Position numbers and translations under genes: made by a program
Assembly: GCF_039545795.1 (NCBI RefSeq)
Contig: NZ_CP154260.1
Coordinates: 2,671,001 to 2,735,000, forward strand
Source of the DNA: Chitinophaga niabensis
Lineage (GTDB): Bacteria; Bacteroidota; Bacteroidia; Chitinophagales; Chitinophagaceae
DNA: 64,000 nucleotides
Direction of reading: 5' to 3'
The notes under the pieces: generated by a model
Databases searched by the model: none
The model's input: only the letters and a program-made list of their open reading frames with translations
What the model was told of the DNA's origin: nothing
In this document: positions 1,734-58,044 of the stretch, piece by piece
How positions within the stretch are numbered: the stretch's first letter is position 1
Layout of the letters: every line of letters starts with the position of its first letter

Positions 1734-2390
1734 ATGAAGGCAGGCATCATTGGCTCTGGCGTGGTAGGTACTACCATAGGCCAGGGGCTGGTACGTTTAG
1801 GCCACTCCGTTATGATCGGAACACGGCATCCCAGGCAGGAGAAACTACAGCAATGGATGATGGAAAACAGCCCTGGCAGCAGCATTGGCACCTTCGCTGA
1901 AACAGCCGCTTATGGAGAAGTGATCTTTCTTTGTACCAACTGGAGTGGTACACAGAACGTGATCGAGCAGGCCGGTGTATGGAATTTCAAAAAGAAGATA
2001 ATCGTAGATGTCACCAATCCCCTGGATGGCAAAGGTCCTGATAAAACCGGCAGGCTAGGACTTGCCCCCGGCAATAGTAATTCCGGGGGAGAACAGGTAC
2101 AGGCCTGGTTACCGGATGCCCATGTAGTAAAAGCCCTTAACATAGTAGGCAACCTCCTGATGGTCAATCCCCAATTCCAGGAAGGAGATCCCACCATGCT
2201 CATTGCAGGAAACGATAACCTGGCCAAAAAAGCAGTCAGTGAAATACTCCGTCAACTAGGCTGGAAAGACATTACAGACACCGGGAACATCGAAATGAGC
2301 CGTTACCTGGAAGGATTAGCTGTGATCTGGTCCGCTATCGCATTCCGGGAAGGCAGCTGGAACCATGCTTTCAGGCTGCTAAGGAAGTAA
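1734..2390 (+). CDS. NADPH-dependent F420 reductase-like oxidoreductase
   Basis: 218-residue protein with an N-terminal Rossmann loop GSGVVG (residues 7-12) after GII, then the NADP-type GTRHP segment, and VDVTNPLDG and VKALNIVG motifs typical of the F420 reductase / NAD-binding NpdG family. Bacteroidota are not known to use F420, so the real cofactor is probably NADP(H) with an unknown substrate. Its last codons (catgctttca...ggaagtaa) resemble the unit of the downstream repeat array at 2385-2700, so the stop codon lies in what looks like a decayed repeat copy. Family call is firm; substrate unknown. Confidence 0.75.
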   Translation: MKAGIIGSGVVGTTIGQGLVRLGHSVMIGTRHPRQEKLQQWMMENSPGSSIGTFAETAAYGEVIFLCTNWSGTQNVIEQAGVWNFKKKIIVDVTNPLDGKGPDKTGRLGLAPGNSNSGGEQVQAWLPDAHVVKALNIVGNLLMVNPQFQEGDPTMLIAGNDNLAKKAVSEILRQLGWKDITDTGNIEMSRYLEGLAVIWSAIAFREGSWNHAFRLLRK

Positions 2391-2700
2391 GATCTGTTTT
2401 TAAGGTTACAGGGGAAGTAGAATTCATGCTTTCACATTACTGCGGAAGTAAAGCTGCTGGAGCCCCGATTTTCACATCACCGCGGAAACAGTATCTGTTC
2501 TTCAGGTTACTGAGGAGATAGAATTCATGCTTTCACATTACTGCGGAAGTAAAGCTGCTGGAGCCCCGATTTTCACATCACCGCGGAAACAGTATCTGTT
2601 CTTCAGGTTACTGAGGAGGTAGAATTCATGCTTTCACATTACTGCGGAAGTTAATCCGCTGAAGCCACGCATTCACATTACCGCGGAACCAGTTCCCCTT
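2385..2700. repeat. 101-bp tandem repeat array between convergent genes
   Basis: Copies begin at GAATTC at 2420, 2521 and 2622, so the period is exactly 101 bp. Copies 1 and 2 differ at only one position that I can see; copy 3 is diverged and runs into the 3' end of the MFS gene. A partial copy precedes 2420. Each unit contains smaller related blocks (TTCACATTACTGCGGAAG, TTCACATCACCGCGGAAA, TTCAGGTTACTGAGGAG). On the minus strand these blocks reproduce the end of the MFS gene (TTCCGCGGTAATGTGAA with its TAA); on the plus strand they resemble the end of the upstream gene. It occupies the whole 287-nt gap. Confidence 0.9.
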
Positions 2701-3958
2701 CAACAATCTCCTCCGTAGCTGTGGCAGGCTCAGGCTCAGCAACAGCAGTAGTCCTCCTGAACGCCCTGATAGCCAGCACAGCAGCAATGGAAGTCAAAAC
2801 AGAAGCCAGGAAGAACGGCGCTCCCGGGAAACGGAAAACCGTATCCTTCTTCGTAAAAAAATGAAACACGCCCGTCATCAGCAAAGGCCCGATGATATTA
2901 CTCAAACTGATCAGACTGGTCATAGCTCCCTGTAATTCCCCCTGTTCAGAAGATGATACCTGGTTACTCATGATCCCTTGCAGCGATGGCCCAAAAATTC
3001 CCCCCATGCTATAGGCCACCAGTATGGCAAACATCATCCAACCCGCTGTAGCTAAGCCAAACAGCAAAAAGCTGGTCATGTAGATCAGTAAACCAATATA
3101 TACCGCCCTATGGTAACCCAGCTTAGGCAGCACGATCCTGATCAGCCCGCCTTGTACAATAGCCAGCAGGATTCCCGAAAGGGAAAGCGAAAGCCCCACC
3201 ATGTCTTCTTCCCAACCGAATCTATACATGTTATAGAACGTCCAGTTGCTTTGAATGGCATGTACCGCTATATAGATCAGGAAAACCGCGCCCAGCAGGG
3301 AATAGATCTTCTGATAGTTCTTCAGTTGCTTTAAAGTACCTATGGGATTGGATCGTTTCCATTCAAAAGTGCGCCTGTTCTCTTTTTTAAGGGATTCCGG
3401 CAGAATGAAATAACCATACAGTGCATTCAATAAAGACATGCCCGCTGTTATCAGGAAAGGTGCATGAACACCCCAGAGCTTACTCGCAAACCCTCCGATA
3501 GAAGGCCCCAGCGTGAATCCTATCCCCAAAGCCATTCCCAGCAGGCCAAAGTTCTGTGCCCGTTTTTCAGGTGTACTGACATCTGCAATATAAGCGGAAG
3601 CCGCTGTGATGCTGGCGCCGGTGAGTCCTAATATGATCCTGCCCACAAACAACCAGAAGATGGAAGGTGCAAAAGCCAGGAAGAGGTAATCTACTCCCAT
3701 ACCAAACATGGAAAGCAATAGCACAGGCCTTCTTCCATAACGGTCACTCAGCCCTCCGAGGATAGGGGCGCACACAAATTGTATAATGGCATAGGAAAAA
3801 GTAAGCCAGCCTCCATACTGGGAAGCATCACTAATATCGCCACCGGTAAGGGTTTCAATCAGTTTGGGAACAACGGGGGATATAATACCAAACCCGGTAA
3901 AGTCGATCAATAATGTAATGAAGATGAACGATAGTGCCCACTTCTGCCTGTCAGCCAT
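2678..3958 (-). CDS. MFS transporter, TetA/TCR-like
   Basis: 426-residue inner-membrane protein with about twelve hydrophobic segments. The cytoplasmic loop 2-3 motif GGLSDRYGRRPVLL and the motif-C-like GLTGASITAASAYIAD followed by LGIGFTLGPSIGG are those of the drug:H+ antiporter-1 group that includes tetracycline efflux pumps. A real drug substrate cannot be named. The C-terminus (ELVPR) is encoded inside the last unit of the 101-bp repeat array. A -7 box lies at 3975-3982. The gene diverges from the DUF1328 gene. Confidence 0.85.
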   Translation of the reverse strand: MADRQKWALSFIFITLLIDFTGFGIISPVVPKLIETLTGGDISDASQYGGWLTFSYAIIQFVCAPILGGLSDRYGRRPVLLLSMFGMGVDYLFLAFAPSIFWLFVGRIILGLTGASITAASAYIADVSTPEKRAQNFGLLGMALGIGFTLGPSIGGFASKLWGVHAPFLITAGMSLLNALYGYFILPESLKKENRRTFEWKRSNPIGTLKQLKNYQKIYSLLGAVFLIYIAVHAIQSNWTFYNMYRFGWEEDMVGLSLSLSGILLAIVQGGLIRIVLPKLGYHRAVYIGLLIYMTSFLLFGLATAGWMMFAILVAYSMGGIFGPSLQGIMSNQVSSSEQGELQGAMTSLISLSNIIGPLLMTGVFHFFTKKDTVFRFPGAPFFLASVLTSIAAVLAIRAFRRTTAVAEPEPATATEEIVEGELVPR

Positions 3959-3974
3959 TGTTTAAGAATTTGCG

Positions 3975-3982
3975 CAAAACTA
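3975..3982 (-). promoter_or_regulatory. -7 box upstream of the MFS transporter
   Basis: Read on the minus strand, TAGTTTTG fits TAnnTTTG and lies 16 nt before the ATG at 3958. No -33 TTTG at the standard distance was found. Confidence 0.4.
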
Positions 3983-4076
3983 GCGGGAATAAAGATCAGA
4001 AAGGCTAAACAAATGACGTACACCATTTGTAATCTGTGGAATGATAATTGTAAACACTACCGTAAAACCATATATT

Positions 4077-4238
4077 ATGTTACGCTGGGCAGTTATTTTC
4101 CTGATCATCGCCATTGTGGCGGCAGTTTTTGGATTCGGCGGAATCGCCGCTGGCGCTGTTTCTATTGCGCGTATCCTCTTCTTTATCTTCGTGGTATTGT
4201 TCCTGATCTCCCTGATCGCAGGTTTGTTAAGGAAGTGA
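4077..4238 (+). CDS. DUF1328 small membrane protein (YtjA-like)
   Basis: A 53-residue protein starting MLRWAVIFL, with two hydrophobic helices separated by [10 protein letters not shown] and ending in LLRK. This is the whole of the DUF1328 family, found widely and often linked to envelope stress; its molecular role is unknown. The start ATG at 4077 is preferred over an upstream ATG at 4041 because family members begin at MLRWA. The 3' end overlaps the end of recF on the opposite strand by 12 nt. Confidence 0.85.
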
Positions 4239-5312
4239 TTCCTGCATATTGATCAGCTGGATCATATCCGGATTACCGGAGAATGCCTGTAACAGCCGTT
4301 CTCCGTGTGTATCTGTGATGAAAACCTGTCCGTAATCAGCCCCCTGCACTAGTTGAATAAGCCTGGAAACCCTTTCCTGGTCCAGCTTTTCGAACACATC
4401 ATCCAGTAAAAGGATAGGAGGGAACTGTTTATGCTCCCGGATGGCCTCATACTGCGCCAGTTTCAGGGCAAAGAGGAAACTTTTGCGCTGCCCCTGGGAA
4501 GCACTGGTTTTCATGGGATGTTCATCCAGCAGGAACAACAGATCATCCCGGTGGATGCCCTGTGTGGTCCTTTGCATTTGTTTGTCCCGCAACCTGCTGG
4601 TGGCCAGCAATTCTGCCAGATCACGCTCCAGGAGCTGGCTTTGATAACGGAAAGCCACTACCTCATGGCGGCCCGCCAGGTAATCATATTTCTGCTGTAC
4701 CTGTCCAATGAAGGTCTGGAGGAAGAATTTCCGGGCTTCAAAGATCGGCACCCCATGTTGTACCAGTTGTTCATCAAACACATCCAGCAAAGCATCAGGG
4801 GAGGGGGCCAGTGATTTAAGCAGACTATTCCGCTGTTGTAAGATCTTATGATAAGCGATCAGGTGATCCAGGTACCCGGGGTGCAACTGGGAAAGCAAAC
4901 TATCCAGCCAGCGGCGGCGGTCCTCACTTCCCCCGAGAATGATCTCTGCATCATCCGGCGCAATCATCACAGCCGGGAACTGACCAATATGGCGGGAGAA
5001 CTTCTCATAACTTTCCTCATTCAGCGCAATCTCCTTTTTCCCTTCCTTTACTGTGCACACAATCTTCTCGTCCCGCGCATGCCTTACAAACTGAGCTTCC
5101 AGCCGGAAACCGTTGGTGGTATACTGTACATTCTGGTTTTCGGCCGTACTGAAATAGCTTTTGGTGAAACAGAGGTAATAAATGGCATCCAGCAGGTTGG
5201 TCTTGCCGGAACCATTATGCCCGGTGATGCCCACGATCCTCCTGGAAAAGTGGAATACCCGGTGAGAGTAATTCTTAAATTGGGTAAGCGCTATTTTAGA
5301 AACAGATAACAA
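4227..5312 (-). CDS. recF: DNA replication and repair protein RecF
   Basis: Helps load RecA at single-strand gaps together with RecO and RecR. The 361-residue protein has the SMC-like ATPase layout: Walker A GHNGSGKT at residues 31-38, the ABC signature segment [10 protein letters not shown] near residue 275 and Walker [13 protein letters not shown] near residue 300, followed by a D-loop. The start appears to be TTG at 5312, giving [15 protein letters not shown]; no in-frame ATG is close. No dnaA, dnaN or gyrB neighbours it here, unlike the classical recF locus. Convergent with and overlapping the DUF1328 gene. Confidence 0.95.
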
Positions 5313-5412
5313 GCTTGTCGTATATAATTAATATAATCAAGTAATATTTTTAACAGGTAGAAGTACAATATATTGCGCGTCTCCGCCCGCCTTCGTACTT
5401 CGTTCCGCAAAA

Positions 5413-5446
5413 TTGCTTGAATTTGCAGATTTTCCTGTTATATTTG
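5413..5446 (+). promoter_or_regulatory. Promoter of the pdhA cluster
   Basis: TTG at 5413-5415 followed after 23 nt by TATATTTG at 5439-5446, matching the Bacteroidota pattern TTG-N17-23-TAnnTTTG. Transcription would begin near 5452, which rules out the TTG at 5417 as the pdhA start. Confidence 0.6.
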
Positions 5447-5482
5447 CGAACAAATTTAGAAATAGTGCAAACTTTAACAGAC

Positions 5483-6475
5483 GTGAAAACGAAATTCTCC
5501 AAAGAGACCTATCTATACTGGTACGAATTGATGCTGTTACTGCGCCGCTTTGAAGAAAAAGCCGGGCAACTTTACGGTATGCAAAAGATCCGTGGATTCT
5601 GTCACCTTTACATTGGCCAGGAAGCTATTGCTGCCGGAGCCATGACAGCTACCAAACCCGGCGACAAATTCATTACGGCTTACCGTGATCACGCCCTTGC
5701 AATCGCTAAAGGTATTTCTCCTGAGGCTTGCATGGCGGAACTGTATGGTAAAGCAACAGGTTGTTCCAAAGGTAAAGGAGGCTCTATGCACTTTTTCTCT
5801 AAAGAACTCGGTTTCTTTGGCGGTCACGGGATCGTAGGTGCGCAGATAGGTACAGGTGCTGGTTTGGCTTTTGCAGAGCAATACCTGGGTACAGACAATG
5901 CTGTACTTTGCTTCTTTGGTGATGGTGCTGCCCGCCAGGGTATGCTGCATGAAACCTTTAACATGGCCATGCTGTGGAAACTTCCCGTAGTATTCATCTG
6001 CGAGAACAACCATTACGCTATGGGTACTTCTGTAGAACGTACTTCCAATGTACTGGATATCTATAAACTGGCAGACGCTTATGAAATGCCTGCCGATTCC
6101 ATCGATGGTATGAGCTGCGAAGCTGTACATGAAGGAGTGGACAGAGCTATCAAACGTGCACGCGAAGGCGGCGGACCAACCCTGCTGGAGATCAAAACTT
6201 ACCGTTACCGCGGCCACTCTATGAGTGACCCCGCTAAATACCGCACCAAAGAAGAGGTGGAAGAGTATAAGGAAAGGGATCCGCTGACTGTTGTGCTCAA
6301 AACACTGCAGGATAACAAATGGATCACTGATGCTGAACTCGAAGCTATCACTGAGCGCGTAAAGAATAAAGTGGAAGATTCCGTTAACTTCGCCGAAGAA
6401 AGCCCATGGCCTTCTGACGATGAATTGCTGAAGGATGTATATATCCAGCAGGATTATCCATTCATCGTAGACTAA
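5483..6475 (+). CDS. pdhA: Pyruvate dehydrogenase E1 component, alpha subunit
   Basis: The TPP-dependent alpha subunit decarboxylates pyruvate for acetyl-CoA formation. The protein contains the entry HLYIGQEAIAAG, the KGGSMHFF segment, the thiamine diphosphate motif GDGAARQG ... ENN, and the YRYRGHSMSDP loop with the conserved phosphorylation-loop shape. Start choice: GTG at 5483 gives KTKFSKETYLYWYELM, close to where relatives begin; GTG at 5465 is also possible. The E1 beta and E2/E3 genes are not next to it, which is unusual compared with the pdhABC operons of many bacteria. It heads the plus-strand cluster that runs to 9619. Confidence 0.92.
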   Translation: MKTKFSKETYLYWYELMLLLRRFEEKAGQLYGMQKIRGFCHLYIGQEAIAAGAMTATKPGDKFITAYRDHALAIAKGISPEACMAELYGKATGCSKGKGGSMHFFSKELGFFGGHGIVGAQIGTGAGLAFAEQYLGTDNAVLCFFGDGAARQGMLHETFNMAMLWKLPVVFICENNHYAMGTSVERTSNVLDIYKLADAYEMPADSIDGMSCEAVHEGVDRAIKRAREGGGPTLLEIKTYRYRGHSMSDPAKYRTKEEVEEYKERDPLTVVLKTLQDNKWITDAELEAITERVKNKVEDSVNFAEESPWPSDDELLKDVYIQQDYPFIVD

Positions 6476-6517
6476 TACGGAACCCTATTACCACTATCTA
6501 ATATATTAGAGCAACAC

Positions 6518-7219
6518 ATGTCAGATAATAAAACAAACACCAAACAACCGGCACCAGCCGCTAAGAACCAGGACTTTGATCTGCAGCACACGGCAGACAG
6601 GGCACAGGACTTCTACACAAAGAACAAAAATGTGATCAACATCGGCTTACTCGCTGTAGTTGTGATCATCGGAGGTTTCTTTGGTTACAATCGTTTTGTA
6701 AAAGCTCCCAACGAAAAGAAAGCGCAGGAAGCCATCTTCGGCGCGCAGAACTTCTTTGCCGTGGATTCTTTCAAGCTGGCACTCAACGGAGACGGTAACA
6801 CCTACGGTTTCCTGCAGGTGATCGATAAATATGGCGGAACAAAAGCAGGCAACCTCGCTAAATACAGCGCAGGCGTTTGTTATGTGAAACTGGGCGACTA
6901 CCAGAAAGGTATCGATCAGTTGAAAGCCTTCTCCAGCAGCGATCTCGTGATCCAATCCCTCGCAAACGGGCTGATCGGAGATGCTTACATGGAACTGAAC
7001 AAAACAGACGATGCCGTTTCTTATTATAAGAAAGCAGGCGCTGCCGATAACATGCTCACTTCCCCCATCTACCTGCTGCGTGCAGGCCTGGCGCTGGAAA
7101 AAGCAAACAAACCGCAGGATGCTATTGCGGTATACGAACAGATCAAACAAAAATACCCACAGACGAACGAAGGCCGTGAGATTGAGAAATACCTGGCCAG
7201 ACTGGGAGTGGTGAAATAA
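6518..7219 (+). CDS. Membrane-anchored TPR protein (YfgM-like)
   Basis: 233 residues: a polar N-terminal 45 residues, one transmembrane helix (about residues 46-63, INIGLLAVVVIIGGFFGY), then tetratricopeptide-type helices (for example AKYSAGVCYVKLGDYQKGI and AGLALEKANKPQDAIAVYEQI). The topology, a short cytoplasmic tail plus an outer TPR domain, resembles YfgM, a partner of the SecYEG/PpiD translocon chaperones. Lies 42 nt after pdhA and 9 nt before ribH, so probably co-transcribed. Function inferred only from architecture. Confidence 0.7.
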   Translation: MSDNKTNTKQPAPAAKNQDFDLQHTADRAQDFYTKNKNVINIGLLAVVVIIGGFFGYNRFVKAPNEKKAQEAIFGAQNFFAVDSFKLALNGDGNTYGFLQVIDKYGGTKAGNLAKYSAGVCYVKLGDYQKGIDQLKAFSSSDLVIQSLANGLIGDAYMELNKTDDAVSYYKKAGAADNMLTSPIYLLRAGLALEKANKPQDAIAVYEQIKQKYPQTNEGREIEKYLARLGVVK

Positions 7220-7228
7220 CTTCGGGAA

Positions 7229-7726
7229 ATGTCTATATATAATCAGACCTTACTCAACGACGCTGGCATTCTTCACCTGGAGGGTGCCAGTGTTGTTATT
7301 GCATATACGGAATGGAACGACTTCATTGTAAATGAACTGGTAACGGGCTGCGAACGCTCACTGGATCAATACAAAGCAAAGTTCACCAAAGCCGTGGTAC
7401 CTGGCGCATTTGAATTACCCTTTGCCTGCAGGCAGATCTGGGAACAAACAAAAGGTACCGGTTCACAACCCTCTGCCATCATAGCTTTTGGCTGTGTGAT
7501 AAGAGGAGAGACCCCTCACTTCGATTACGTTTGTAAAGCCGTGACAGACGGTATCCTGCAACTCAACCTTGAACTCCCCGTACCTGTTATATTCGGTATA
7601 CTCACCGTGGATAACATCGAACAGGCAAAAGACCGTCTCGGTGGCGCCCATGGCCATAAGGGAGAGGAAGCTGCGCTTACCGCCCTGAAAATGATCAGCT
7701 TCCAGAGGCAGCTGGCCAAGATTTAA
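7229..7726 (+). CDS. ribH: 6,7-dimethyl-8-ribityllumazine synthase
   Basis: Condenses 5-amino-6-ribitylamino-uracil with 3,4-dihydroxybutanone phosphate in riboflavin synthesis. The 165-residue protein carries the family landmarks: TEWNDFIVNEL, VPGAFELPFA, GCVIRGETPHFDYVC, PVIFGILTVDN and AHGHKGEEAA with the catalytic His in the GETPHFDYV loop. The length is normal. It is not next to other riboflavin genes. It starts 9 nt after the TPR gene stop, indicating tight coupling. Confidence 0.96.
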   Translation: MSIYNQTLLNDAGILHLEGASVVIAYTEWNDFIVNELVTGCERSLDQYKAKFTKAVVPGAFELPFACRQIWEQTKGTGSQPSAIIAFGCVIRGETPHFDYVCKAVTDGILQLNLELPVPVIFGILTVDNIEQAKDRLGGAHGHKGEEAALTALKMISFQRQLAKI

Positions 7727-7773
7727 GCGCAAAAGAGTACTTTTAAGGAATTACACGCAATCTGATACTGATA

Positions 7774-37195: not shown

Positions 37196-37329
37196 GGGTT
37201 CCTATAAGATTCCAATGCTTGACATAGGCTCGACATAGGGTCAGGATTCGTTACTCCTTTGTTGGAGGGACCTTATGTCATTGTTACCGGATAGAAGGAT
37301 TGAAATGTCAGTGGGTGGGGATAACTACG

Positions 37330-37384
37330 CTTTATGTCTACTTTATCTCTACTTTATGTATGCTTTATGTATGCTTTATCTCCC
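37330..37384. repeat. 11-bp tandem repeat overlapping the DUF71 gene end
   Basis: Five 11-bp units: CTTTATGTCTA, CTTTATCTCTA, CTTTATGTATG, CTTTATGTATG and CTTTATCTCCC. The last two lie in the coding sequence of the minus-strand DUF71 gene (codons for EIKHT); each TTTA gives a potential TAA on that strand, and the used stop is at 37365-37367. No spacer sequence. Confidence 0.85.
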
Positions 37385-38021
37385 ATTGAAGGAACCAGTA
37401 TTCCTCATGCCTCACCTTCGTAAACCCGGGCAACTGCACCGGCACGGCAAACAAAGGGCAATCCACTACTACAGTATGGAACTCCCCGTTCTCCCCGCAT
37501 ACATCCACGCCTTTCTCCTCCAGTTCCGCTATCAGCACATCATCCAGGATCCGGCCCAGGAAACTTTCCCCCAGATGGGTATTACAGGATACGATCATAC
37601 ACCGGATCCCTTCCTGCAACATGCGGTATACCAGCAATTTACGTTCCAGTTGCCACAAAGGTAAAAGGGCTTCCAGCCCGGCAGCAGCACATACCTTTTC
37701 CTCCCAGTCCCGGTGCGCCTGCAGATCAATATCTCCAAACACGGCAGCGGAAGCAGCATACTCCTGCTTTAAGTCTTTTAACTGTGTAACAAAGTTGGCT
37801 TCGTAATCCTGCCAGCTGCTGGCAATGGTAGTAAGCGGCAAACCGGCTGCGGCAGCCTGTTGTTGAAGGATGGAGGAAGGGAGGCCATGGGACCGGGAGA
37901 TCTGGCCGTTTTCATTCATCACATTCAGGAGTGCAACCGGACGGTAACCCTGTTGCACAGCCTGCATGAGTGCGAAACAGCTATCTTTACCGCCGCTCCA
38001 GGAGCAAATAATATTAGTCAT
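37365..38021 (-). CDS. DUF71 ATP-pyrophosphatase (diphthine-ammonia ligase family)
   Basis: 218 residues. Starts MTNIICSWSGGKDSCFAL with the PP-loop SGGKDS, then VFGDIDLQAHRDWEEKVC, and ends with CGENGEFHTVVVDCPLF, all signatures of the DUF71/Dph6 family. Archaea and eukaryotes use it to amidate diphthine on EF2; bacteria lack diphthamide, so the bacterial substrate is unknown. The C-terminal codons lie in an 11-bp repeat and the region before the start codon is another repeat (38021-38205) that keeps the frame open to an ATG at 38156. Confidence 0.88.
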   Translation of the reverse strand: MTNIICSWSGGKDSCFALMQAVQQGYRPVALLNVMNENGQISRSHGLPSSILQQQAAAAGLPLTTIASSWQDYEANFVTQLKDLKQEYAASAAVFGDIDLQAHRDWEEKVCAAAGLEALLPLWQLERKLLVYRMLQEGIRCMIVSCNTHLGESFLGRILDDVLIAELEEKGVDVCGENGEFHTVVVDCPLFAVPVQLPGFTKVRHEEYWFLQWEIKHT

Positions 38022-38200
38022 GTAATTTGAGAAGAAATGGGAACGTTCTGCGATCCGGTTATGCCGGCCATCTGAATTTGAGAAGAAATGGAAACTTTCT
38101 GCCATCCAGCCATGCAAAAGAACACTTCTCTTCTGCAGCCAGGTTATGTTCGTCATCTAAATTTGAGAAGAAACCAGCACTTCTTTCCGCATGCCGCCTC
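38021..38200. repeat. Tandem repeat carrying start codons of the DUF71 gene
   Basis: The block AATTTGAGAAGAAATGG (plus strand) occurs at 38024 and 38075 and, with changes, at 38160. A second block TTCTGCNATCCNG recurs at 38046, 38097 and 38131. On the minus strand each AATTTGAG block sits just before an ATG (38156, 38072, 38021), all in the same frame (spacings 84 and 51 nt). It lies between lepA and the DUF71 gene, which are co-directional. Confidence 0.8.
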
Positions 38201-38205
38201 TGCCT

Positions 38206-44270: not shown

Positions 44271-44388
44271 TAACGGCCTTTTACGGCCTTGTTACGGCCT
44301 TGTAATGGCCTTTTCTGGCCTCGTGACGGCCTTACCCGGCCTTGTAACGGCCTTGAACCGGCCTGATTCCCCAATTATACGGCCTCTC
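44271..44388. repeat. 10-11-bp GGCC-core tandem repeat at the DPP IV gene end
   Basis: About ten degenerate units with the core (A)CGGCCTT, for example TTACGGCCTTG, TTACGGCCTTG, TAATGGCCTTT, TCTGGCCTCG, TGACGGCCTTA, CCCGGCCTTG, TAACGGCCTTG. On the minus strand the unit AGGCCG also appears in the last codons of the DPP IV gene (CRPGAK). Immediately followed by the terminator hairpin. Confidence 0.85.
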
Positions 44389-46539
44389 TTACTTCGCCCC
44401 CGGCCTGCAATGTTCCCGTAAAAACTGCGTGTACAATGCAGACAAATGTTCGTATGTTCCCGCACCTTCAGAAATACCATGTGTTCTGTTAGGATAAGGC
44501 ATGAACTGGAACAGCTTTTTATATTTGATCAATTCATTCACCAGCATCTCCGCATTCTGATAATGAACGTTATCATCACCTGTACCGTGAATATAGAGTA
44601 ATTGCCCTTGTAAGTTCTTTGCATACGTGATCGGAGAACCTTTCACAAAGTCTTCCATATTCTCAGCAGGCAAGCCCATGAAGCGCTCCTGGTAAATGTT
44701 ATCGTAGGTCAGTTGATTGGCAACTGCAGCTACCGCAATCCCAGTTTTATAGATCTCCGGATATTGGAACAACAGGTTCAGCGTCATGGAACCACCACCG
44801 CTCCAGCCCCATACTGCAATACGGTCTGCATCCACAAATGGCCATTTCAGGATCTCTTTGGCACCCATTGCCTGATCTCTTGCATTCAGTACACCTACTT
44901 TGCGGTAAATGCTTTTCCGCCAGGTACGTCCTTTCGGAGCAGGTGTTCCGCGGTTATCCAGTGAGATATAGATGTAACCATCTTCATTCATATTACCCGC
45001 ATACAGGAAATTCTGTGCGTTGCCAAAACCATCCTGCACCGTGCAGGATGCAGGTTCCCCATACACATAAAATACTACGGGATATTTTTTAGTGGAATCA
45101 AAGTTGGCAGGTTTCGTGATCCAGCCATCCATTGTTACACCATCTTCTGTAGTTACTTTAAAGAACTCCACGTTATTTTTTCTTCCGGCAGCGGCTCCAA
45201 ATTCTTTGCCACTGAGGCTTTTGTGATCAGGCAAACTAATGCGTTCATTTTGCGGCGTGAACTGGTGGTTCTCAAAACTATGAATGGCAAACAAAGCATT
45301 GGAAGAGATCTTGTACTTATGAATGCCCGCCTGGTTTGCAGGCGTAACACGTTCTGCTTTGCCACCGCTTAATGGAATACGGTAGAGATATTGCTGCGTG
45401 GCATTTTCAGGAGAAGCAATAAAATACACCACGTTGTTCTTTTCATCGATCTTGTTAATATTGATCACATCGTATTCACCGGGTGTGAGTAATTGTTCCT
45501 GTTTGCCGTCTGCAGAAATACGATAGAGATGACGCCAGCCGTCTTTCTCACTCACCCATACAAAAGCTTTCCCACCCTGGATCCAATCCCAACCGGTGAT
45601 ATCACCATTATCCCAGGCAGATTTCACATCTAACCAGGCATCATCTGTTTCTGTATATACCGTTTGCGCTTTGCCGCTTACAGGGTCTAACACCATCAGT
45701 TTAGAGGTGTTCTGTTTCCGGTTCAGTTGCTGGATCATGAGGCTGTTCTTACCGGGCAGCCATTCCATACGGGGAATGTAATGTTGCTGTGCATCGCCGG
45801 GCACCTGCATCCAGGTGGTTTTCTTTGTGGCCAGGTTCACTACGCCTACTTTACAGGCAGAAGGGCTCACACCTGCTTTGGGATATTCTACCGGGATGGT
45901 ATACGAATAGATCGAATCTGTGTTCCTGATCATAAGAAAGTCCCTGATCTTACGGGCATCTATCTGCCAGTAGGCAATACTCTTGCTGTCAGGGCTCCAT
46001 CTGAAACCATCACGACAGCCAAATTCCTCTTCATAAGCCCAATCGAAAGTGCCATTGATCAAACGGCGGGTACCGTCTTTGGTCAGTTGGTCTATTTTGC
46101 CCGAGGCCAGGTCTTCCACATAAAGGTTGTGATCACTCACGTAGGCCGCCTTTTTGCCGTCCGGGGAAAGTTTGGTGAACATGAGGGTCACTTCGGGCAG
46201 GGATTTACCCAGTTTCTTTAACTGCGTGGTTTTCAGGTCATACAACCAGTAATCCCCGCGGGTATTGTAACGCCATACACGGCGTGTGTTGCTGAAGATC
46301 AATACTTTCTGTTCATCATCACTGAAAGTAAAGCTTTGAATATTGCCCGCTGCACTCAATGCTTTGGCGGGTACTTTTTCACTCCTTTGGTTGTCTTTTG
46401 CCTGGTAGGCCATAATGGCCCCGTTTTCTTCTGTATAATAGGCATTTCCATCGGCGGACCATGTGATGTCCTGAGATAAAACCGGGAGGCCTATGCATAC
46501 GCAAAGGCAGAGTAGTAGCAGATTTCGGATTAGTTGCAT
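44389..46539 (-). CDS. S9 family dipeptidyl peptidase IV
   Basis: 716 residues: signal peptide from ATG 46539 (MQLIRNLLLLCLCVCIGLPV then LSQD), beta-propeller DPP IV N-terminal domain (WAYEEEFGCRDGFRWSPDSK with the Glu-Glu substrate-binding pair), then an alpha/beta hydrolase with the nucleophile in GWSGGGSMT, Asp in HGTGDDNVHYQN and His in NRTHGIS. Removes Xaa-Pro dipeptides in the periplasm or outside. The canonical GWSYGG is GWSGGG here. Earlier in-frame ATGs exist at 46566 and 46632. Confidence 0.92.
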   Translation of the reverse strand: MQLIRNLLLLCLCVCIGLPVLSQDITWSADGNAYYTEENGAIMAYQAKDNQRSEKVPAKALSAAGNIQSFTFSDDEQKVLIFSNTRRVWRYNTRGDYWLYDLKTTQLKKLGKSLPEVTLMFTKLSPDGKKAAYVSDHNLYVEDLASGKIDQLTKDGTRRLINGTFDWAYEEEFGCRDGFRWSPDSKSIAYWQIDARKIRDFLMIRNTDSIYSYTIPVEYPKAGVSPSACKVGVVNLATKKTTWMQVPGDAQQHYIPRMEWLPGKNSLMIQQLNRKQNTSKLMVLDPVSGKAQTVYTETDDAWLDVKSAWDNGDITGWDWIQGGKAFVWVSEKDGWRHLYRISADGKQEQLLTPGEYDVININKIDEKNNVVYFIASPENATQQYLYRIPLSGGKAERVTPANQAGIHKYKISSNALFAIHSFENHQFTPQNERISLPDHKSLSGKEFGAAAGRKNNVEFFKVTTEDGVTMDGWITKPANFDSTKKYPVVFYVYGEPASCTVQDGFGNAQNFLYAGNMNEDGYIYISLDNRGTPAPKGRTWRKSIYRKVGVLNARDQAMGAKEILKWPFVDADRIAVWGWSGGGSMTLNLLFQYPEIYKTGIAVAAVANQLTYDNIYQERFMGLPAENMEDFVKGSPITYAKNLQGQLLYIHGTGDDNVHYQNAEMLVNELIKYKKLFQFMPYPNRTHGISEGAGTYEHLSALYTQFLREHCRPGAK

Positions 46540-46795
46540 AAATGTCAGGCTGAGTTTGTAGCGCATAAAAATAAGGGAATAATGCCCAATCCCCGGCAGG
46601 GAAAATGTTGAATGGTAATAAGGGGGTAACAATGTGGCCTAAAGTTTGATTTGTTAATGGAAAAAAGGCTACACTAGCGCATTTTCACGAAACAGCAATA
46701 AATATTGATAGTATAGCCATTTGTTAATTAAAAGATTTATCCATAATAATTTTTGACAATTTAAAATATTTGTTATTTTTAGGGCATCGATCCTA

Positions 46796-52312: not shown

Positions 52313-52337
52313 ATAGGTTAGCCAGCTTTATATCAAT

Positions 52338-52481: not shown

Positions 52482-52747
52482 TCCTGCATGAAGAGCTGCA
52501 TCGCATGCCTTACAACTTTCAAAAGCCTGTTCCATCAGACAAATAACCGATGGAAGTCGCTTTCTGAAAATGCTTATGGCATTTACCTGGTGCATTACAT
52601 TTTGTGATCCGGTGCCAGTACCTGCTGCTGGAATTTCAGCTGCCGGCATTGATGAAAGCGATCATCACATTTGTAGTAGCGGTGGTTGTAAGTTGGTGGG
52701 TTACAGCATTGGTCCGGAAGAATAATAGCATCAGAAAGTATTTATAG
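52482..52747 (+). pseudogene. C-terminal remnant of an acyltransferase-3 family protein, frameshifted
   Basis: From 52482 one frame reads MKSCIACLTTFKSLFHQ ... WKSLSENAYGIYLVHY, the typical end region of acyltransferase 3 membrane proteins, then hits TGA at 52605. Losing one base at the T run 52600-52603 shifts to the next frame, which continues FVIRCQYLLLEFQLPALMKA and a last membrane helix (IITFVVAVVVSWWVTALV) and ends RKYL at the stop 52745. The N-terminal 250 or so residues are absent upstream, where stops occur in all relevant frames. A decayed fragment, not a working gene. Confidence 0.75.
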
Positions 52748-52792
52748 GCGTACTCATTGCAATTCGAATAAATAAAAACTGCTAGAGAAAAT

Positions 52793-52834
52793 GAACTCCC
52801 CGGGCGTCTGCCCGGGGAGCGCTATTTTTTTTCA
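52793..52834 (+). terminator. GC-rich terminator downstream of the remnant
   Basis: CTCCCCGGGC pairs with GCCCGGGGAG across GTCT; CGCTATTTTTTTT follows. Confidence 0.8.
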
Positions 52835-52961
52835 GATAGTGATCTATAGCAATTAATGTATTTCCGGTAAACGAACCCAGCAGTTTTTCTCCAAATAAGC
52901 CATGCATATCCACAACAAAACGTAGCTTTAACTGTTTACTCAGAAACAAAAGCAAGGTCCT

Positions 52962-53786
52962 ATGGTAACCGATTTCTCCTGGCAATTTTCCGGCACACAC
53001 TTCCATGGTATCACCTGGCAACCTGAACGGTTCAGTCATGTGATGATCATGATCCACGGCATTGGCGAACATGTTGGCCGTTATGGCCATGTAGCAGAAT
53101 TCTTCCAGCAGGAAGGATACCTCGTTACCGGTATCGACCATTTCGGTCATGGAGGAAGTGATGGCAAACGCGGTGCCGCGAAAAAACTGGAAGAGATCTT
53201 CGATTACCTGCAAGGGTTCATTCAATATGTACAGGAAGCTTATCAGGTGCCTGTTGTATTATATGGGCATAGTATGGGAGGAGGCATCCTCACTGGTTTG
53301 CTGTTACACCGTCAGCCGGATGTACTGGCTGCTATTATATCGGGCCCTGCATACATTGTGGGCAGTAAACCCAATGCTTTCCTGAGAGGTGTATTGAAAG
53401 TAGGCGCTACCTTATTTCCGCAGGTACGTGTAACCCCGGGGCTGGATATCCACCAGATCTCCCATGATCAGAAAGAAGTAGAGAAATTCCAGCAGGACCC
53501 GCTCCGGCATGATAAAGCCAGTCTCCGCCTCATGGACATTCTCGTATCCAATGGCGCCTGGTGCCTGGAACATGCAGATCGCCTAACTGTGCCTTCTCTC
53601 TTAATCCATGGAAATGCGGATACTTTCACCAGCGTGGAAGGCTCCCGCCTGTTTGCAGAACGAGCACCCAAAAAACTGCTTACTTATAAGGAATGGGATG
53701 GCTTCTATCATGAATTACATAATGAGCCGGGGAAAATAGAAGTACTGCAGTTTATTGCAGGCTGGCTGAGCCATTTTGCATCATGA
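52962..53786 (+). CDS. Alpha/beta hydrolase, monoacylglycerol lipase/lysophospholipase type
   Basis: 274 residues of the Hydrolase_4 group: MIMIHGIGEHVGRYGHVAEF near the N-terminus, nucleophile Ser104 in GHSMGGG, Asp in HGNADTFTSVEGSRLF and His in GFYHELHNE. Cytosolic, probably cleaving monoacylglycerols or lysophospholipids. The last five codons and TGA stop (CATTTTGCATCATGA) are the first unit of the downstream 79-80-bp repeat. Convergent with the 2OG oxygenase gene. Confidence 0.9.
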   Translation: MVTDFSWQFSGTHFHGITWQPERFSHVMIMIHGIGEHVGRYGHVAEFFQQEGYLVTGIDHFGHGGSDGKRGAAKKLEEIFDYLQGFIQYVQEAYQVPVVLYGHSMGGGILTGLLLHRQPDVLAAIISGPAYIVGSKPNAFLRGVLKVGATLFPQVRVTPGLDIHQISHDQKEVEKFQQDPLRHDKASLRLMDILVSNGAWCLEHADRLTVPSLLIHGNADTFTSVEGSRLFAERAPKKLLTYKEWDGFYHELHNEPGKIEVLQFIAGWLSHFAS

Positions 53787-54024
53787 ACAGAAGTGCTGCA
53801 GACTGTCTAAGTCAATTGCATCTTGAACGGAAGTGCTGCAGACCGCTGAGTCACTTTGCGTCATGAACAAAAGTGCTGCAGACTGTCTAGTCAATTGCGT
53901 CTTGAACGGAAGTGCTACAGACCACTGAGTCACTTTGCGTCATGAACAAAAGTGCTGCAGACTGTCTAGTCAATTGCGTCTTGAATGGAAGTGCTACAGA
54001 CCACTGAGTCACTTTGCGTCATGA
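53766..54024. repeat. 79-80-bp tandem repeat containing both convergent stop codons
   Basis: CTGAG marks unit starts at 53766, 53846, 53925 and 54004 (spacing 80, 79, 79). Each unit is itself two related blocks of about 40 bp (GTCACTTTGCGTCATGAAC...AGTGCTGCAGAC and GTCAATTGCGTCTTGAACGG...AGTGCTACAGAC). In the first unit the TGA ends the lipase gene; in the last unit the TCA read backwards (TGA) ends the oxygenase gene, whose FHDAK tail is coded by the repeat block. Confidence 0.92.
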
Positions 54025-54695
54025 AAAATAACCCCTAAAGTATAACGGCTGCCATTCCTCACTTCACTCACCCCATGTTTCATATTCGCCCTGTAATAGC
54101 CTGTCGTGCTTTTCGCCGGCCTGAAGTTGGTCGTGAAGATCACCATATCTCCTTTCCCGGGCCTGAGCACAATAGCCTTTGATTGCGCGCGGGGCCTTTG
54201 CTCTATCAGCACAAATTCACCACCTGTATAGTCTTCAGACAAACACACTACCAGCTGGAAAGGAAAGAAAAAGTCTCCATAAAGGTCCTGGTGCAGCGTG
54301 TTATGCCCTCCCCTGCCATATTGCAGGATCAGTACCGTTGGCTGCGTCTGCTGATGTTCTCTGCAAACAGCCTGTAATGCTTCGAATTCTGCAGGATATA
54401 CAGTAGGGATCTTCAATACCCGCATCCAGTCGTTTGCAATGGGTGCGAGTTGAGGATACACCTGTTCCCGGAGCTGCTGAATAAGCGGTGGCAATGGATA
54501 AGAGAAGTATTTGTATTCTCCCTGTCCAAAACGGTAACGCTCCATGGAGATCGTTTTCCTGTAGTGTTCCGGTTCATTGTATGCTTTCACAAGCCCATCG
54601 CATTCTTTAGCAGTAAGCACATCCTTCACTACAGCATATCCCTGTGCATGCATGGCTTCAGTTACAGCCTGCCAGTTGATGTTTTCCAGTTTCAT
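54009..54695 (-). CDS. 2-oxoglutarate/Fe(II) oxygenase
   Basis: 228 residues with a jelly-roll oxygenase core: NTLHQDLYGD gives the H-x-D iron pair, MKHGVSEV the distal His, and GSRYTLGVIFHD the 2-oxoglutarate-binding Arg. Related to prolyl-hydroxylase-like or AlkB-like enzymes; substrate unknown. The C-terminus FHDAK and the stop codon are encoded within the last unit of the convergent repeat array. Confidence 0.88.
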   Translation of the reverse strand: MKLENINWQAVTEAMHAQGYAVVKDVLTAKECDGLVKAYNEPEHYRKTISMERYRFGQGEYKYFSYPLPPLIQQLREQVYPQLAPIANDWMRVLKIPTVYPAEFEALQAVCREHQQTQPTVLILQYGRGGHNTLHQDLYGDFFFPFQLVVCLSEDYTGGEFVLIEQRPRAQSKAIVLRPGKGDMVIFTTNFRPAKSTTGYYRANMKHGVSEVRNGSRYTLGVIFHDAK

Positions 54696-54793
54696 ACCTG
54701 CAAGTTAGAACAGGCAGTAGTGCCGCCCTACCCGAAACTTGCTATTATGTATTCAGCACATTATTGATTAAATTGTAATTAAAACCTGGAAGA

Positions 54794-57094
54794 ATGCCCC
54801 GGATCATCCTGTTACTCCTGTTATACACCTCGTCTGCAATAGCGCAGCAGAAGTCGGACTCTGCCATCGTCAATACGCCATCCTCCTGGATCCAGCGGGA
54901 GATCAGTTTTATGAACAAACTGGAACTCTCCAGTGAATATGAAGTGGACACTATTGCCCTGCAAAAGGAGATCTCCCGGCTGGCCATCACCCTCACACTC
55001 ATGGAGCGCGATTTCTACACCCAGGTACATGCCCTGAACCTCCGCACCATTTATGATATCAAAATGGAAGTAGGCGCTATCACCCGAAAAGTGAGGAAGT
55101 GGCAGCAGCGCATGCGCAGATGGAATGATGAAATGGCAGGGAAAACATTACAAATAGAAAAGATCACCAGCGAAATAAAATACTTTACAGAACATGGCGA
55201 TTCCCTCTTAAAGGAATCCTATGCAAAAGAAATAGACTACCTCCAATGGCGGCACGACAGGGCCATTGGTAATGCATCCCGCATCCTCAAACTCTATACA
55301 ACCGTAGAAGACAGCCTGAACATCTTCAGCGGCAGAGCCTATGACCTCTATGACGATGCCGATGAAGTGCTCACCCGCAGGGAAATGTACCTCCTGCACC
55401 GCGACCTTCCTCCCATCTGGAAAGCCACGCCGGCAGATTATGCTGCCTCCTTCACCAGCACGGTTAAAACCACCTTCCTGCAAACGCTGGAAAACCTCCG
55501 TTTCTATGCAGAAAACTCCCTGAGCCGCATTGTATTGTTCAGGATCCTGATCTTCCTGCTTTGCCTCGTTCCGCTGCGGATGTTTAAAAAGAAAAAGGAG
55601 AAAGACCATCGTTTAATGTTCCTCAGCAAATACCCTTCTCTTTCCTCCACCATCATGGGAATGGTACTGGCACCCTTTATTTTCATTGATGCACCATATG
55701 CTTTCCTGGAAATGATCTTCATCAGCTTAACTGCGCTGGTAGGATACCTTACCTGGAAGGAACATCCTTATCTCAATAAAAAAGCTTTCTTCATACTGAT
55801 CTTCTCCTTCCTGCTGCTGATGCTGCTGAACTTCTTTATAACGGCCACCCTGGTAGGAAGGATCATTTTCAGCCTGTCTGTCTTACTGCTGCTGCCGCTT
55901 TGGATCTTCTACAAAGAGATCCCGGGTTATCCCATCAAACGAAAAAAAGCCATGCAGGCGTTCATCATTATCATAGCCGCACATATTGCCCTGGGTGCAG
56001 GATTAACCATCACCGGAAATTATACCCTGGGCAAATCCCTGATACTCGTAGCATTCGACACGGTGATCCTTAGTATGATGTTCTACATCGCAGTGCATGC
56101 ATTACTGGATTACCTCCTTATACTAATTGATCTCTTTAACGGCCGTAGCGAACATATCCGCATCAATGGCCAGCTCGTATATGACCATCTTCGCCCACTG
56201 TTCATTTTTATCTCCGTAGTCCTGATCCTGATCGGTTACCTCATCAATACCAATCTCTATGAAATAGTAATGACGGAGTTCAGGGACTTCTTCACCGAAC
56301 CGCGCTTTATCGGAGACGGGCAATTTACGTTCGGCAGTGTTGCCATTTTCCTGGGCAGTGTGTTCCTTGCTTTCTACATTGCGGGCATCCTGCGGAATAT
56401 GGTAGGTGCCCGGGAAGACAGTAAGGAGCATCGTAAAAGCAATATCGGGAGTTACCTGCTGCTGGGGCGTTTTCTGCTTATCTGTGGTGGTTTCTTTGTG
56501 GGAGTTGTAGCATCGGGGGTTTCTCTTTCCAACTTCACCATCGTACTCGGTGCTGTGGGTGTAGGCATTGGTTTTGGTTTGCAGAACATTGCCAGCAACC
56601 TTTTGTCCGGGATCATTATCGTATTTGAAAAACCTTTTGTGGTGGGAGACAGACTGGAAATATCCAACGAGCTGGGCAGGGTGAAGGAAATAGGTTTGCG
56701 TGCCACACGCCTCGCTATTATAGACGGGTCAGAGGTCTTAATCCCTAACGGCAAATTGCTCGCCAACGATCTCAAGAACTGGACGCTCACTAATAACCTC
56801 CGCAGGCTGGAATTACAGGTACCTACTGACCAGGATGTGAATCATGCACAGGTGATAGGCCTGATACAACAGGCTTTCTCAGAGATCCCGGAGATCATTA
56901 AAACCTCTCCTAATTACGCCGTTGTATCCGGCGTGGTGGAAGATATGCTGGTATTCACACTACATTTCTGGGTGGAGGATTCTGAGAACAGGATTATCAT
57001 GAAGGGAAAGGTCCTGGGCAGGATCCATGAGTTGTTCAAGGAACATCATATTTCTTATCCCAGGAGAGATGTATGGATCAATCCGGAACAGTGA
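54794..57094 (+). CDS. Large mechanosensitive channel (MscS family, MscK-like)
   Basis: 766 residues: signal peptide (MPRIILLLLLYTSSAIAQQ), a periplasmic coiled-coil region (about residues 25-230), eight or more membrane helices, then the MscS pore and beta domain (GVGIGFGLQNIASNLLSGII then IVFEKPFVVGDRLEI, VLIPNGKLL) and C-terminal domain. Osmotic safety valve of the large type. The 3' end and stop codon fall in a decayed copy of the downstream 40-bp repeat. Confidence 0.93.
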   Translation: MPRIILLLLLYTSSAIAQQKSDSAIVNTPSSWIQREISFMNKLELSSEYEVDTIALQKEISRLAITLTLMERDFYTQVHALNLRTIYDIKMEVGAITRKVRKWQQRMRRWNDEMAGKTLQIEKITSEIKYFTEHGDSLLKESYAKEIDYLQWRHDRAIGNASRILKLYTTVEDSLNIFSGRAYDLYDDADEVLTRREMYLLHRDLPPIWKATPADYAASFTSTVKTTFLQTLENLRFYAENSLSRIVLFRILIFLLCLVPLRMFKKKKEKDHRLMFLSKYPSLSSTIMGMVLAPFIFIDAPYAFLEMIFISLTALVGYLTWKEHPYLNKKAFFILIFSFLLLMLLNFFITATLVGRIIFSLSVLLLLPLWIFYKEIPGYPIKRKKAMQAFIIIIAAHIALGAGLTITGNYTLGKSLILVAFDTVILSMMFYIAVHALLDYLLILIDLFNGRSEHIRINGQLVYDHLRPLFIFISVVLILIGYLINTNLYEIVMTEFRDFFTEPRFIGDGQFTFGSVAIFLGSVFLAFYIAGILRNMVGAREDSKEHRKSNIGSYLLLGRFLLICGGFFVGVVASGVSLSNFTIVLGAVGVGIGFGLQNIASNLLSGIIIVFEKPFVVGDRLEISNELGRVKEIGLRATRLAIIDGSEVLIPNGKLLANDLKNWTLTNNLRRLELQVPTDQDVNHAQVIGLIQQAFSEIPEIIKTSPNYAVVSGVVEDMLVFTLHFWVEDSENRIIMKGKVLGRIHELFKEHHISYPRRDVWINPEQ

Positions 57095-57363
57095 TTATTT
57101 GTAAGGAATCGTACTTACATATTCAAAACATAGTTCACTTACAGGAATGAAACCCTACATGCTCAAAACATAGTTCACTTACAGGAATGAAACCCTACAT
57201 GCCTAAAACATAGTTCACTTACAGGAATGAAACCCTACATGCCCAAAACATAGTTCACTTACAGGAATGAAACCTACATGCCCAAAATATAGTTCACTTA
57301 CAGGAATGAAACCCTACATGCCCAAAACATAGTTCATTTGCGGGGATAAAACCGCACATGTTC
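57087..57363. repeat. 40-bp tandem repeat between convergent genes, carrying both stop codons
   Basis: Units begin AAAACATAG (one AAAATATAG) at 57125, 57165, 57205, 57245, 57284 and 57324: period 40, one unit of 39. The first four are almost identical. The last (57324-57363) is the actual 3' end of the deacetylase gene; its TGA (minus strand, 57334-57336) is preserved as TCA in the other units. A diverged copy at 57087-57124 holds the stop codon of the upstream channel gene. No spacers between units. Confidence 0.93.
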
Positions 57364-58044
57364 AAACACATAGTTCTCATGCTTCCGGAGGTTATCGATC
57401 AGCTGATGTAATTCACTTTCTTCCCATTTCTTCTGGAACATTTCATCATGTAGTAATACCACCAGGTGATCCCCTGTGATCAGCCGGGTTTCAATCTCCT
57501 TCGTCATCTGATCTACAGTCTGGATGGGGGTTGCATCTGAATCTTTATGCTGCCATTCCAGGTCCCAGCCGATCAGGGAAAAACCGTTAGCAGCCAGCAG
57601 ATCTGCAGCATCTTTGCCACTGGAGCCATCATCTTTAACCCGGGAACCTATGCGCCACATATTTCTGCCCGGAAGTCTTACTATCTTAAAGCGGAGATGC
57701 AGGGCCTGTTCATTCTTCTCAATATCTGCCAATACATTCTGCGCATTGCTGTAAAATTCCTTGTACTTATTATGCGCATGCGTGAAGCTATGGTTATAGG
57801 ATTCTACGAAATGATTTTGCTCATACATGTTATAATACCCCATGAATTTCCTGCTTTCTTCCACATGTTCTCCCACCAGGAATACACTGATCTTTAAACG
57901 TTCCGCGAGAATTACGCTGTCGATGTTCTCACTTCCTTTTAAAGGGCCGTCATCAAAAGTAAGGTAGATATATTTAATGGGGAGCTTGCTGTTGAAAGAA
58001 GAAAAAAGCAGCAGGCAGGTAATAGCAAAGAGGGCTGTTTTCAT
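57334..58044 (-). CDS. Polysaccharide deacetylase (NodB homology)
   Basis: 236 residues with signal peptide (MKTALFAITCLLLFSSFNS). NodB motifs: YLTFDDGPLKGS (catalytic Asp pair) and HSFTHAHNKY (His metal ligands H-x4-H like), RLPGRNMWRIG and WDLEWQHKD. Would deacetylate a cell-wall or exopolysaccharide. The final 13 codons are one 40-bp repeat unit. It lies downstream of xseB on the same strand, 65 nt away. Confidence 0.85.
   Translation of the reverse strand: MKTALFAITCLLLFSSFNSKLPIKYIYLTFDDGPLKGSENIDSVILAERLKISVFLVGEHVEESRKFMGYYNMYEQNHFVESYNHSFTHAHNKYKEFYSNAQNVLADIEKNEQALHLRFKIVRLPGRNMWRIGSRVKDDGSSGKDAADLLAANGFSLIGWDLEWQHKDSDATPIQTVDQMTKEIETRLITGDHLVVLLHDEMFQKKWEESELHQLIDNLRKHENYVFEHVRFYPRK

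What the first reader, a model, noticed from the sequence alone, without database searches (positions are those of the whole stretch)
2363..57400. Recurring pattern: locus-specific tandem repeats built on gene ends
Six arrays (2385-2700, 37330-37384, 38021-38200, 44271-44388, 53766-54024, 57087-57363) have unrelated units of 101, 11, 51/34, 10-11, 79-80 and 40 bp. All lie exactly at gene ends. In all three arrays that fill a gap between convergent genes, the terminal codons and stops of both neighbours lie inside units. This points to repeated local duplication of gene 3' ends rather than a dispersed repeat family. Possible roles: buffering of convergent transcription, RNA 3'-end protection, or simple slippage tolerated where a stop is preserved.
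Basis: partly seen in the sequence, partly recalled or inferred. Interest (0 to 1): 0.82.

Follow-up and report, generated by a model that had tools for sequence, protein, structure and literature searches.

The report
Gene-end duplications between convergent genes
In this Chitinophaga genome, the last bases of genes that run towards each other have been copied side by side into small arrays, probably because this is one of the few places where a duplication harms neither gene.

Summary
The arrays are real, but of more than one kind. A1 (2368-2693), A5 (53768-54025) and A6 (57089-57376) lie between convergent genes. In at least one of two sister Chitinophaga species the same stops overlap (A1 15 bp, A5 16 bp) or abut (A6). 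The units match the sister junction better than any of 48-50 other convergent junctions. So local duplication of gene 3' ends is well supported for these three and for one array elsewhere. A1 and A5 have higher-order units (101-bp trimer, 79-bp dimer).
A2 and A4 are 10-11-bp arrays, A4's motif dispersed. A3 is weak.
In 1.6 of 7.2 Mb, window excluded, arrays occur in 7/148 convergent, 4/726 co-directional and 0/155 divergent gaps. They lie near stops and avoid starts, but overlap stops no more than chance. G021 shows the same; G053 and five other species have 0/102.
Best reading: tolerated minisatellites. A tandem copy spanning both stops leaves both reading frames intact and separates the genes. 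No terminator or special RNA fold was found in A1, A5, A6. An extra convergent hot spot is possible, not shown.

The parts
2368..2693 (.). A1: array in a convergent gap. Monomers of 31, 30 and 40 bp form a 101-bp trimer; the first copy carries the + gene stop (2388-2390), the last the - gene stop (2678-2680)
   Evidence: in sister G053 the two genes overlap by 15 bp here; unit ranks 1 against 48 and 50 control junctions
1734..2390 (+). left neighbour of A1, F420/NADP oxidoreductase family (PF03807)
2678..3958 (-). right neighbour of A1, MFS transporter (PF07690)
37330..37384 (.). A2: 11-bp array (CTTTATGTATA) covering the stop of the minus gene; an 11-bp array with a different unit lies at the same site in G053, none in G021
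37365..38021 (-). diphthamide synthase family gene (PF01902) whose end lies in A2; start at 38021 is my reading (MTNIICSWSG)
38026..38205 (.). A3: three TTTGAGAAGAAA copies 51 and 85 bp apart, between the lepA stop and the next start; weak, not in the TRF list
44271..44388 (.). A4: 10-11-bp CGGCCTT array downstream of a minus-strand DPP IV/S9 peptidase gene (44389-46632); motif dispersed in the genome
53768..54025 (.). A5: seven copies of about 40 bp (last one partial), alternating types A and B (79-bp dimer); first copy carries the + gene stop, last copy the - gene stop
   Evidence: genes overlap by 16 bp in G021, are 58 bp apart with degenerate copies in G053
52962..53786 (+). left neighbour of A5, serine aminopeptidase S33 family (PF12146); its last codons match part of the unit
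54009..54695 (-). right neighbour of A5, 2OG-Fe(II) oxygenase family (PF09859)
57089..57376 (.). A6: seven copies of about 40 bp; inner five 92-100% alike, outer copies carry the + stop (57092-57094) and the - stop (57334-57336)
   Evidence: in both sisters the stops abut (distance 0) and there is one copy
54794..57094 (+). left neighbour of A6, mechanosensitive channel (PF00924)
57334..58044 (-). right neighbour of A6; family not searched

Best explanation
A1, A5 and A6 are young, lineage-specific minisatellites born by tandem duplication of a short segment that spans the 3' ends of two convergent genes. Where the stops overlap or abut, a tandem copy of the segment leaves both reading frames whole: the plus gene uses the first copy and the minus gene the last. 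The duplication is therefore harmless for any length, and it separates the two genes. The inner copies are then free to drift and to be re-amplified by slippage or unequal exchange, giving homogeneous centres, older edges and higher-order units. Shown: overlapping or abutting stops in sisters, origin of the units, higher-order build, convergent enrichment, avoidance of starts. Inferred: that the sister state is the ancestral one, slippage or template switching as the cause, tolerance by selection as the reason for the location, no function in the cell.
For: Sister junctions by gene call: A1 overlaps by 15 bp in G053; A5 overlaps by 16 bp in G021 and is 58 bp apart in G053; A6 distance is 0 in both. 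Unit against orthologous junction ranks 1st against 48 (G053) and 50 (G021) other convergent junctions in six of six comparisons: scores 35-57, highest controls 22-33. A fourth array, L136:18193-18483, is three copies of the last 29 codons plus stop (my count); G053 and G021 have one copy. A5 alternates A/B: same type 87-100%, between types 70-80%; A1 is a 31/30/40 trimer; A6 centre 92-100%, edges 63-78% to the centre. Own genome without window: 7/148 convergent, 4/726 co-directional, 0/155 divergent gaps (Fisher 0.0006 and 0.006). Own + G021 without window: 17 of 20 arrays within 90 bp of a stop (null 9.6), 0 of 20 within 30 bp of a start (null 10.0). A1, A5, A6 units: fold z -0.2 to +1.4, no terminator by a simple scan.
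Against: Only 4 of 20 arrays outside the window (own + G021) overlap a stop, fewer than the 7.5 expected, so gene-end-derived units look like a minority type. Of ten other convergent arrays examined for origin (eight, two), only L136 gave a clear coding-end source. Several convergent arrays are a dispersed A-rich family. At A1 G053 itself may hold a second degenerate copy (alignment) and G021 holds an unrelated array, so the ancestral state there rests on one sister. A simple tolerance model under-predicts the convergent share: expected 0.16-0.38, observed 13/20, P from 1e-6 to 0.013 depending on the protected upstream length. Tolerance alone does not explain why G053 (0/48) and five other species (0/54) lack such arrays.
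Confidence: 0.75

Rival explanations
1. Convergent transcription itself makes these sites duplicate: colliding polymerases, supercoiling or fork stalling between the two genes raise the rate of template switching, so the enrichment is mutational and not only a filter.
For: A convergent excess remains at comparable spacing (residual gap over 100 bp): 11/81 convergent against 7/333 co-directional, own + G021, window included; and above the tolerance model up to 200 bp of protected upstream sequence (P = 0.013, window excluded).
Against: 0/102 convergent gaps of G053 and five other species hold such arrays; for G021 alone the excess over the model is not significant at 150 bp or more (P 0.072 and 0.15); co-directional gaps may be more constrained than the model allows; arrays are few (23 in own + G021).
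Confidence: 0.2
2. The arrays have a selected role: buffer against read-through and antisense RNA, transcription terminator, or RNA 3'-end protection.
For: Position downstream of genes; one G021 array multiplies a bidirectional terminator-like hairpin about five times; concatenated A2 and A4 units fold better than shuffles.
Against: A1, A5, A6 units fold no better than shuffles on either strand and hold no intrinsic terminator by the scan used; their units differ from site to site; at least one sister does without each of them.
Confidence: 0.1
3. They are copies of a dispersed repeat or mobile element (REP/MITE-like).
For: True of the A4 motif (7 places by pattern), of the A-rich CCGCCCTTTGCAGCGCGG arrays, and of an 85-bp palindromic element with 11-bp arms (at least 15 long matches in the own genome).
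Against: A1, A5 and A6 units have no other match (E 0.01) in 1.6 Mb of own genome plus 0.8 Mb of sisters; their best source is the local gene end.
Confidence: 0.05

Closest known systems
Bacterial minisatellites / VNTR loci (recalled)
   Same: Head-to-tail arrays with locus-specific units
   Different: Here the unit can be traced to the 3' ends of convergent genes, with the unduplicated state in a sister, and A1 and A5 carry higher-order structure
Tandem repeats of archaeal Borg elements (PMC9879509; abstract and passages seen)
   Same: Recent, independent, genome-specific arrays; [quoted passage not shown]
   Different: Borg units are described as perfect and A-rich, about half in ORFs; the passages shown mention no link to convergent stops or to gene overlap
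REP / BIME elements (PMC3733652; abstract, passages and one section read)
   Same: Mostly between convergent and co-directional genes, close to 3' ends; can supply stop codons
   Different: REPs are short palindromes dispersed in many copies; A1, A5, A6 are neither. No Y1_Tnp (PF01797) match in the own genome
Mycobacterial MIRU repeats (recalled, no call)
   Same: Intergenic tandem units that touch stop codons
   Different: MIRUs are a dispersed family (recalled)
Convergent overlapping genes (PMC2174442; passages seen)
   Same: The sister junctions here are such overlaps
   Different: That paper treats the making of overlaps by stop-codon mutation; the word 'duplication' has 0 occurrences in its main text

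Membership tests
Minisatellite / VNTR | Tandem head-to-tail units of about 10-100 bp | tested here: met
   (A1, A2, A5, A6; A4 irregular; A3 not in the TRF list)
Minisatellite / VNTR | Copy number varies between strains of one species | not tested
   only different species were compared; the arrays differ between them
REP / BIME | Many dispersed copies | tested here: not met
   A1, A5, A6: 0 other loci in 2.4 Mb at E 0.01
REP / BIME | Palindromic unit that folds | tested here: not met
   A1, A5, A6: z -0.2 to +1.4 on both strands
REP / BIME | RAYT (Y1) transposase in genome | tested here: not met
   PF01797: 0 matches at E 0.001 in the own genome; control genomes 5 of 14
Intrinsic terminator array | GC-rich stem followed by T run in each unit | tested here: not met
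   none in A1, A2, A5, A6 with 80-bp flanks by a home-made scan; one beside A4, outside the array
Rfam RNA family | match to a family model at its gathering score | tested here: not met
   0 matches in the window

The most novel reading that the evidence does not exclude
Tandem duplication of shared 3' ends is a regular route by which overlapping convergent genes in bacteria become uncoupled, fed by a mutational hot spot at sites of convergent transcription that is switched on in some lineages (own genome, G021) and off in others.
Probability: 0.2. Interest if true: 0.72.

Novelty: new variant of a known kind. Interest (0 to 1): 0.47.

Why it matters
Overlapping convergent genes are usually discussed by how they form. 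These junctions show a way out of overlap: one duplication gives each gene its own copy of the shared end. If general, it explains part of where bacterial minisatellites sit, offers a neutral test bed for duplication rates, and makes the question whether convergent transcription is mutagenic directly testable with sister genomes.

Tried and rejected
Assembly artefact: not tested with reads; thought unlikely since inner copies differ, A5 has degenerate relatives in G053, and the five single-contig genomes sampled lack such arrays. Dispersed family as the source of A1/A5/A6: rejected. RNA structure or terminator role for A1/A5/A6: no support; in that call units under 60 bp (A2, A4 and A6 among them) were folded as tandem copies of the consensus, so the low z of A2 and A4 may partly reflect that. 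A general link to stop codons: not supported outside the window. L132 array: the downstream region is not alike in the sisters, no conclusion on its origin. Other arrays: A2 unit ranks 2 (tied with a control) and 9; G162469 ranks 16 and 42, G195380 13 and 35, C161792 4 and 3, G142950 1 and 1, all four of which also match other arrays (dispersed type); G226636 ranks 41 and 45 and G106004 ranks 1 (own) and 45 (G053), both without other loci, origin open; C198791 ranks 1 in G021 by a weak gapped alignment in a 515-bp gap and has no mapped G053 site, not counted as support. RAYT link: none. Plasmid records: no match for window 1-25000. Genome contigs gave two loci, one close. Two scripts failed and were rerun in corrected form (one search then 54; one search then 69). 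Nine literature searches on the theme (two without any hit; open-licence PMC only; mostly listings seen) showed no account of convergent gene-end arrays, which is weak evidence of absence.

Rows dropped before counts: gaps over 3000 bp; periods under 20 bp; scores under 150 (G053 and five-species zeros: under 80) in the main tests. In some searches a tRNA-region array (L136:11127) and a tRNA-like array (L141:12699) were dropped too. Below the cuts, G053 has an 11-bp convergent array (score 93) and G042 a 16-bp one (score 67). Genes were called by a home-made hexamer ORF finder, not by a standard annotator; starts are approximate.
Full report
WHERE. The window is bases 2671001-2735000 of a 7.20-Mb single-contig genome. 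A named relative, Chitinophaga sp. SYP-B3965, shares 90% of residues in the channel gene beside A6. Over a 400-kb segment the aligned parts are 85.4% (G053) and 80.5% (G021) identical to the own genome.

CHECK OF THE OBSERVATION. TRF finds five of the six arrays; A3 is three spaced copies of a 12-mer. Gap sequence of the sampled own genome holds 81 arrays of score 40 or more, against 7.0 on average in five dinucleotide shuffles. In A1, A5 and A6 both neighbours' stops lie in the outer copies. A2 lies in a fourth convergent gap and covers the minus gene's stop. A3 and A4 lie between co-directional genes.

SISTER STATE. By gene call: at A6 the two stops abut in both sisters (distance 0; own 239). 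At A5 the genes overlap by 16 bp in G021 and are 58 bp apart in G053, where old degenerate copies can be seen (own 222). At A1 they overlap by 15 bp in G053 (own 287); G021 has an unrelated 133-bp array there (distance 459). Protein ends are kept: WLSHFAS and FHDAK at A5, EHVRFYPRK at A6 minus and RLLRK at A1 plus are the same in all three genomes; the A6 plus end differs in its last residue in G021, and the A1 minus end varies. The G053 junction at A1 may hold a second degenerate copy inside the minus gene's end (alignment). At A2 the own genome and G053 have 11-bp arrays with different units at the same site; G021 has none. Of 39 own convergent pairs with at least one mapped sister, 13 have a mapped distance of 0 or less in a sister, and 5 of these 13 are apart in the own genome; 3 of the 5 are A1, A5 and A6 (my count from the listing; mapped distances come from extended BLAST flanks and are approximate, e.g. 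-21 for A1 where the gene call gives -15).

SOURCE OF THE UNITS. Each unit was aligned to the sister's orthologous junction and to the other convergent junctions of that sister. A1 scores 49 and 36, A5 57 and 41, A6 39 and 35 (G053, G021); the highest controls are 27/33, 25/22 and 24/27; rank 1 in six of six. The same call gives weaker, mixed or no match for the eight other arrays tried, told one by one under Tried and rejected. Outside the window, L136:18193-18483 consists of three copies of the last 29 codons and stop of a plus-strand gene; both sisters carry one copy. L132, tested in the same way, gave no answer.

ARCHITECTURE. A5 has copies of about 40 bp in alternation: same type 87-100% alike, different type 70-80%. 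A1 has monomers of 31, 30 and 40 bp that make a 101-bp trimer; same position 97-100% between the two full trimers, 50-57% between positions. A6 has five inner copies 92-100% alike and two outer copies 63-78% like the inner ones. Old edges with a homogeneous centre are what slippage or unequal exchange gives (knowledge of satellite DNA; recalled).

GENOME SAMPLE. The own sample is 1.6 Mb: a 400-kb segment with the window, plus 60 blocks of 20 kb spread over the genome. Arrays with score 150 or more and period 20 or more: 10/160 convergent, 4/762 co-directional, 1/168 divergent gaps. Without the window and the two tRNA arrays: 7/148, 4/726, 0/155 (Fisher 0.0006 and 0.006). G021: 6/51, 3/179, 0/51. 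With score 80 or more: G053 0 of 48 convergent gaps, five other species 0 of 54. Own + G021 against these: 16/211 against 0/102, P = 0.002. The phenomenon is lineage-bound, and it is missing in the nearer of the two sisters.

TOLERANCE OR HOT SPOT. A tandem duplication leaves both genes whole if it spans or lies between the two stops of a convergent pair; for other pairs some upstream sequence must be spared. Scoring every gap by that rule, the expected convergent share is 0.16 to 0.38 for 0 to 200 bp of spared sequence; observed, window excluded, own + G021: 13 of 20 (P 1.2e-6 to 0.013). For the own genome without window P is 0.061 at 200 bp, and for G021 alone 0.072 at 150 bp and 0.15 at 200 bp. 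Arrays avoid starts (0 of 20 within 30 bp, expected 10.0) and lie within 90 bp of a stop (17 of 20, expected 9.6), but overlap a stop in only 4 of 20, expected 7.5. Tolerance is thus the main, not certainly the whole, explanation.

THREE CLASSES. (I) Local gene-end arrays: A1, A5, A6, L136. (II) A dispersed A-rich family with a CCGCCCTTTGCAGCGCGG-like core, in own genome and G021. (III) Arrays with a period of 11 bp: 23 of 81 gap arrays in the own sample against 1 per shuffle; 2 of 20 in G021, 3 of 12 in G053, 3 of 23 in the five other species. Part of class III forms an 85-bp palindromic element with 11-bp arms around a conserved core: by my count from the listing 15 long matches in the own genome (a lower bound, 15 of 23 candidates were scored), 10 in G053, 10 in G021, one short match in G040, none in the other 56. 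The own genome has no Y1 transposase match. A4 belongs to a 10-11-bp CGGCCTT family at 7 places by pattern; the stricter pattern with a fixed 3-base spacer gave 1 match in own and 2 in G003 among 60 genomes.

FUNCTION. Units of A1, A5, A6 fold no better than shuffles (z -0.2 to +1.4) and show no intrinsic terminator; concatenated A2 and A4 units fold beyond shuffles (z -2.4 to -5.6), and one G021 array multiplies a strong terminator-like hairpin. No Rfam family matches the window.

LITERATURE. Nine searches showed no account of gene-end-derived arrays at convergent stops; the library is open-licence PMC only and I judged mostly by listings. Nearest: REPs favour 3' ends and convergent gaps (PMC3733652) and Borg tandem repeats that arise independently and sometimes begin in gene ends (PMC9879509; passages).

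VERDICT. The result is a well-traced case of tolerated duplication with a possible hot-spot component, not a new system.

Noticed in passing
L099:8406-8511, L100:14783-14869, L126:about 100-193, L127:4804-4890: An 85-bp dispersed palindromic element with arms of tandem 11-mers (CATCCTTGCTT) around a conserved core; at least 15 long matches in the own genome, 10 each in G053 and G021, one short match in G040 and none in the other 56 genomes. No Y1 transposase match in the own genome.
   Followed up: partly
window 37219-37245; L140:14754, L142:9425, L145:4447, L149:13320; G021 segment 37856: A second dispersed 11-mer, GACATAGGCTC, in direct repeats at unrelated loci, including upstream of A2.
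   Followed up: no
L095:8965-9008, L109:4082-4153; G021 segment 122211; G053 segment 140500: Arrays of ATACGGGATTG in own genome, G021 and G053; in L095 and G021 preceded by TTTTGACAGGTACCCCACCTTA; L109 carries a related unit in reverse.
   Followed up: no
L180 (G021), L179 (G053): The palindrome GAGGACGCAAATTGCGTCCTC recurs several times within the 620 bases printed downstream of one gene in G021 and twice in those printed for G053; looks like a multiplied terminator.
   Followed up: no
G021 segment 142950-143563: Array of about 146-bp units that contain a strong terminator-like hairpin; the own genome and G053 have one such hairpin at the same site.
   Followed up: partly
L141:12699-12838: Tandem tRNA-like 74-bp repeat in a divergent gap.
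   Followed up: no
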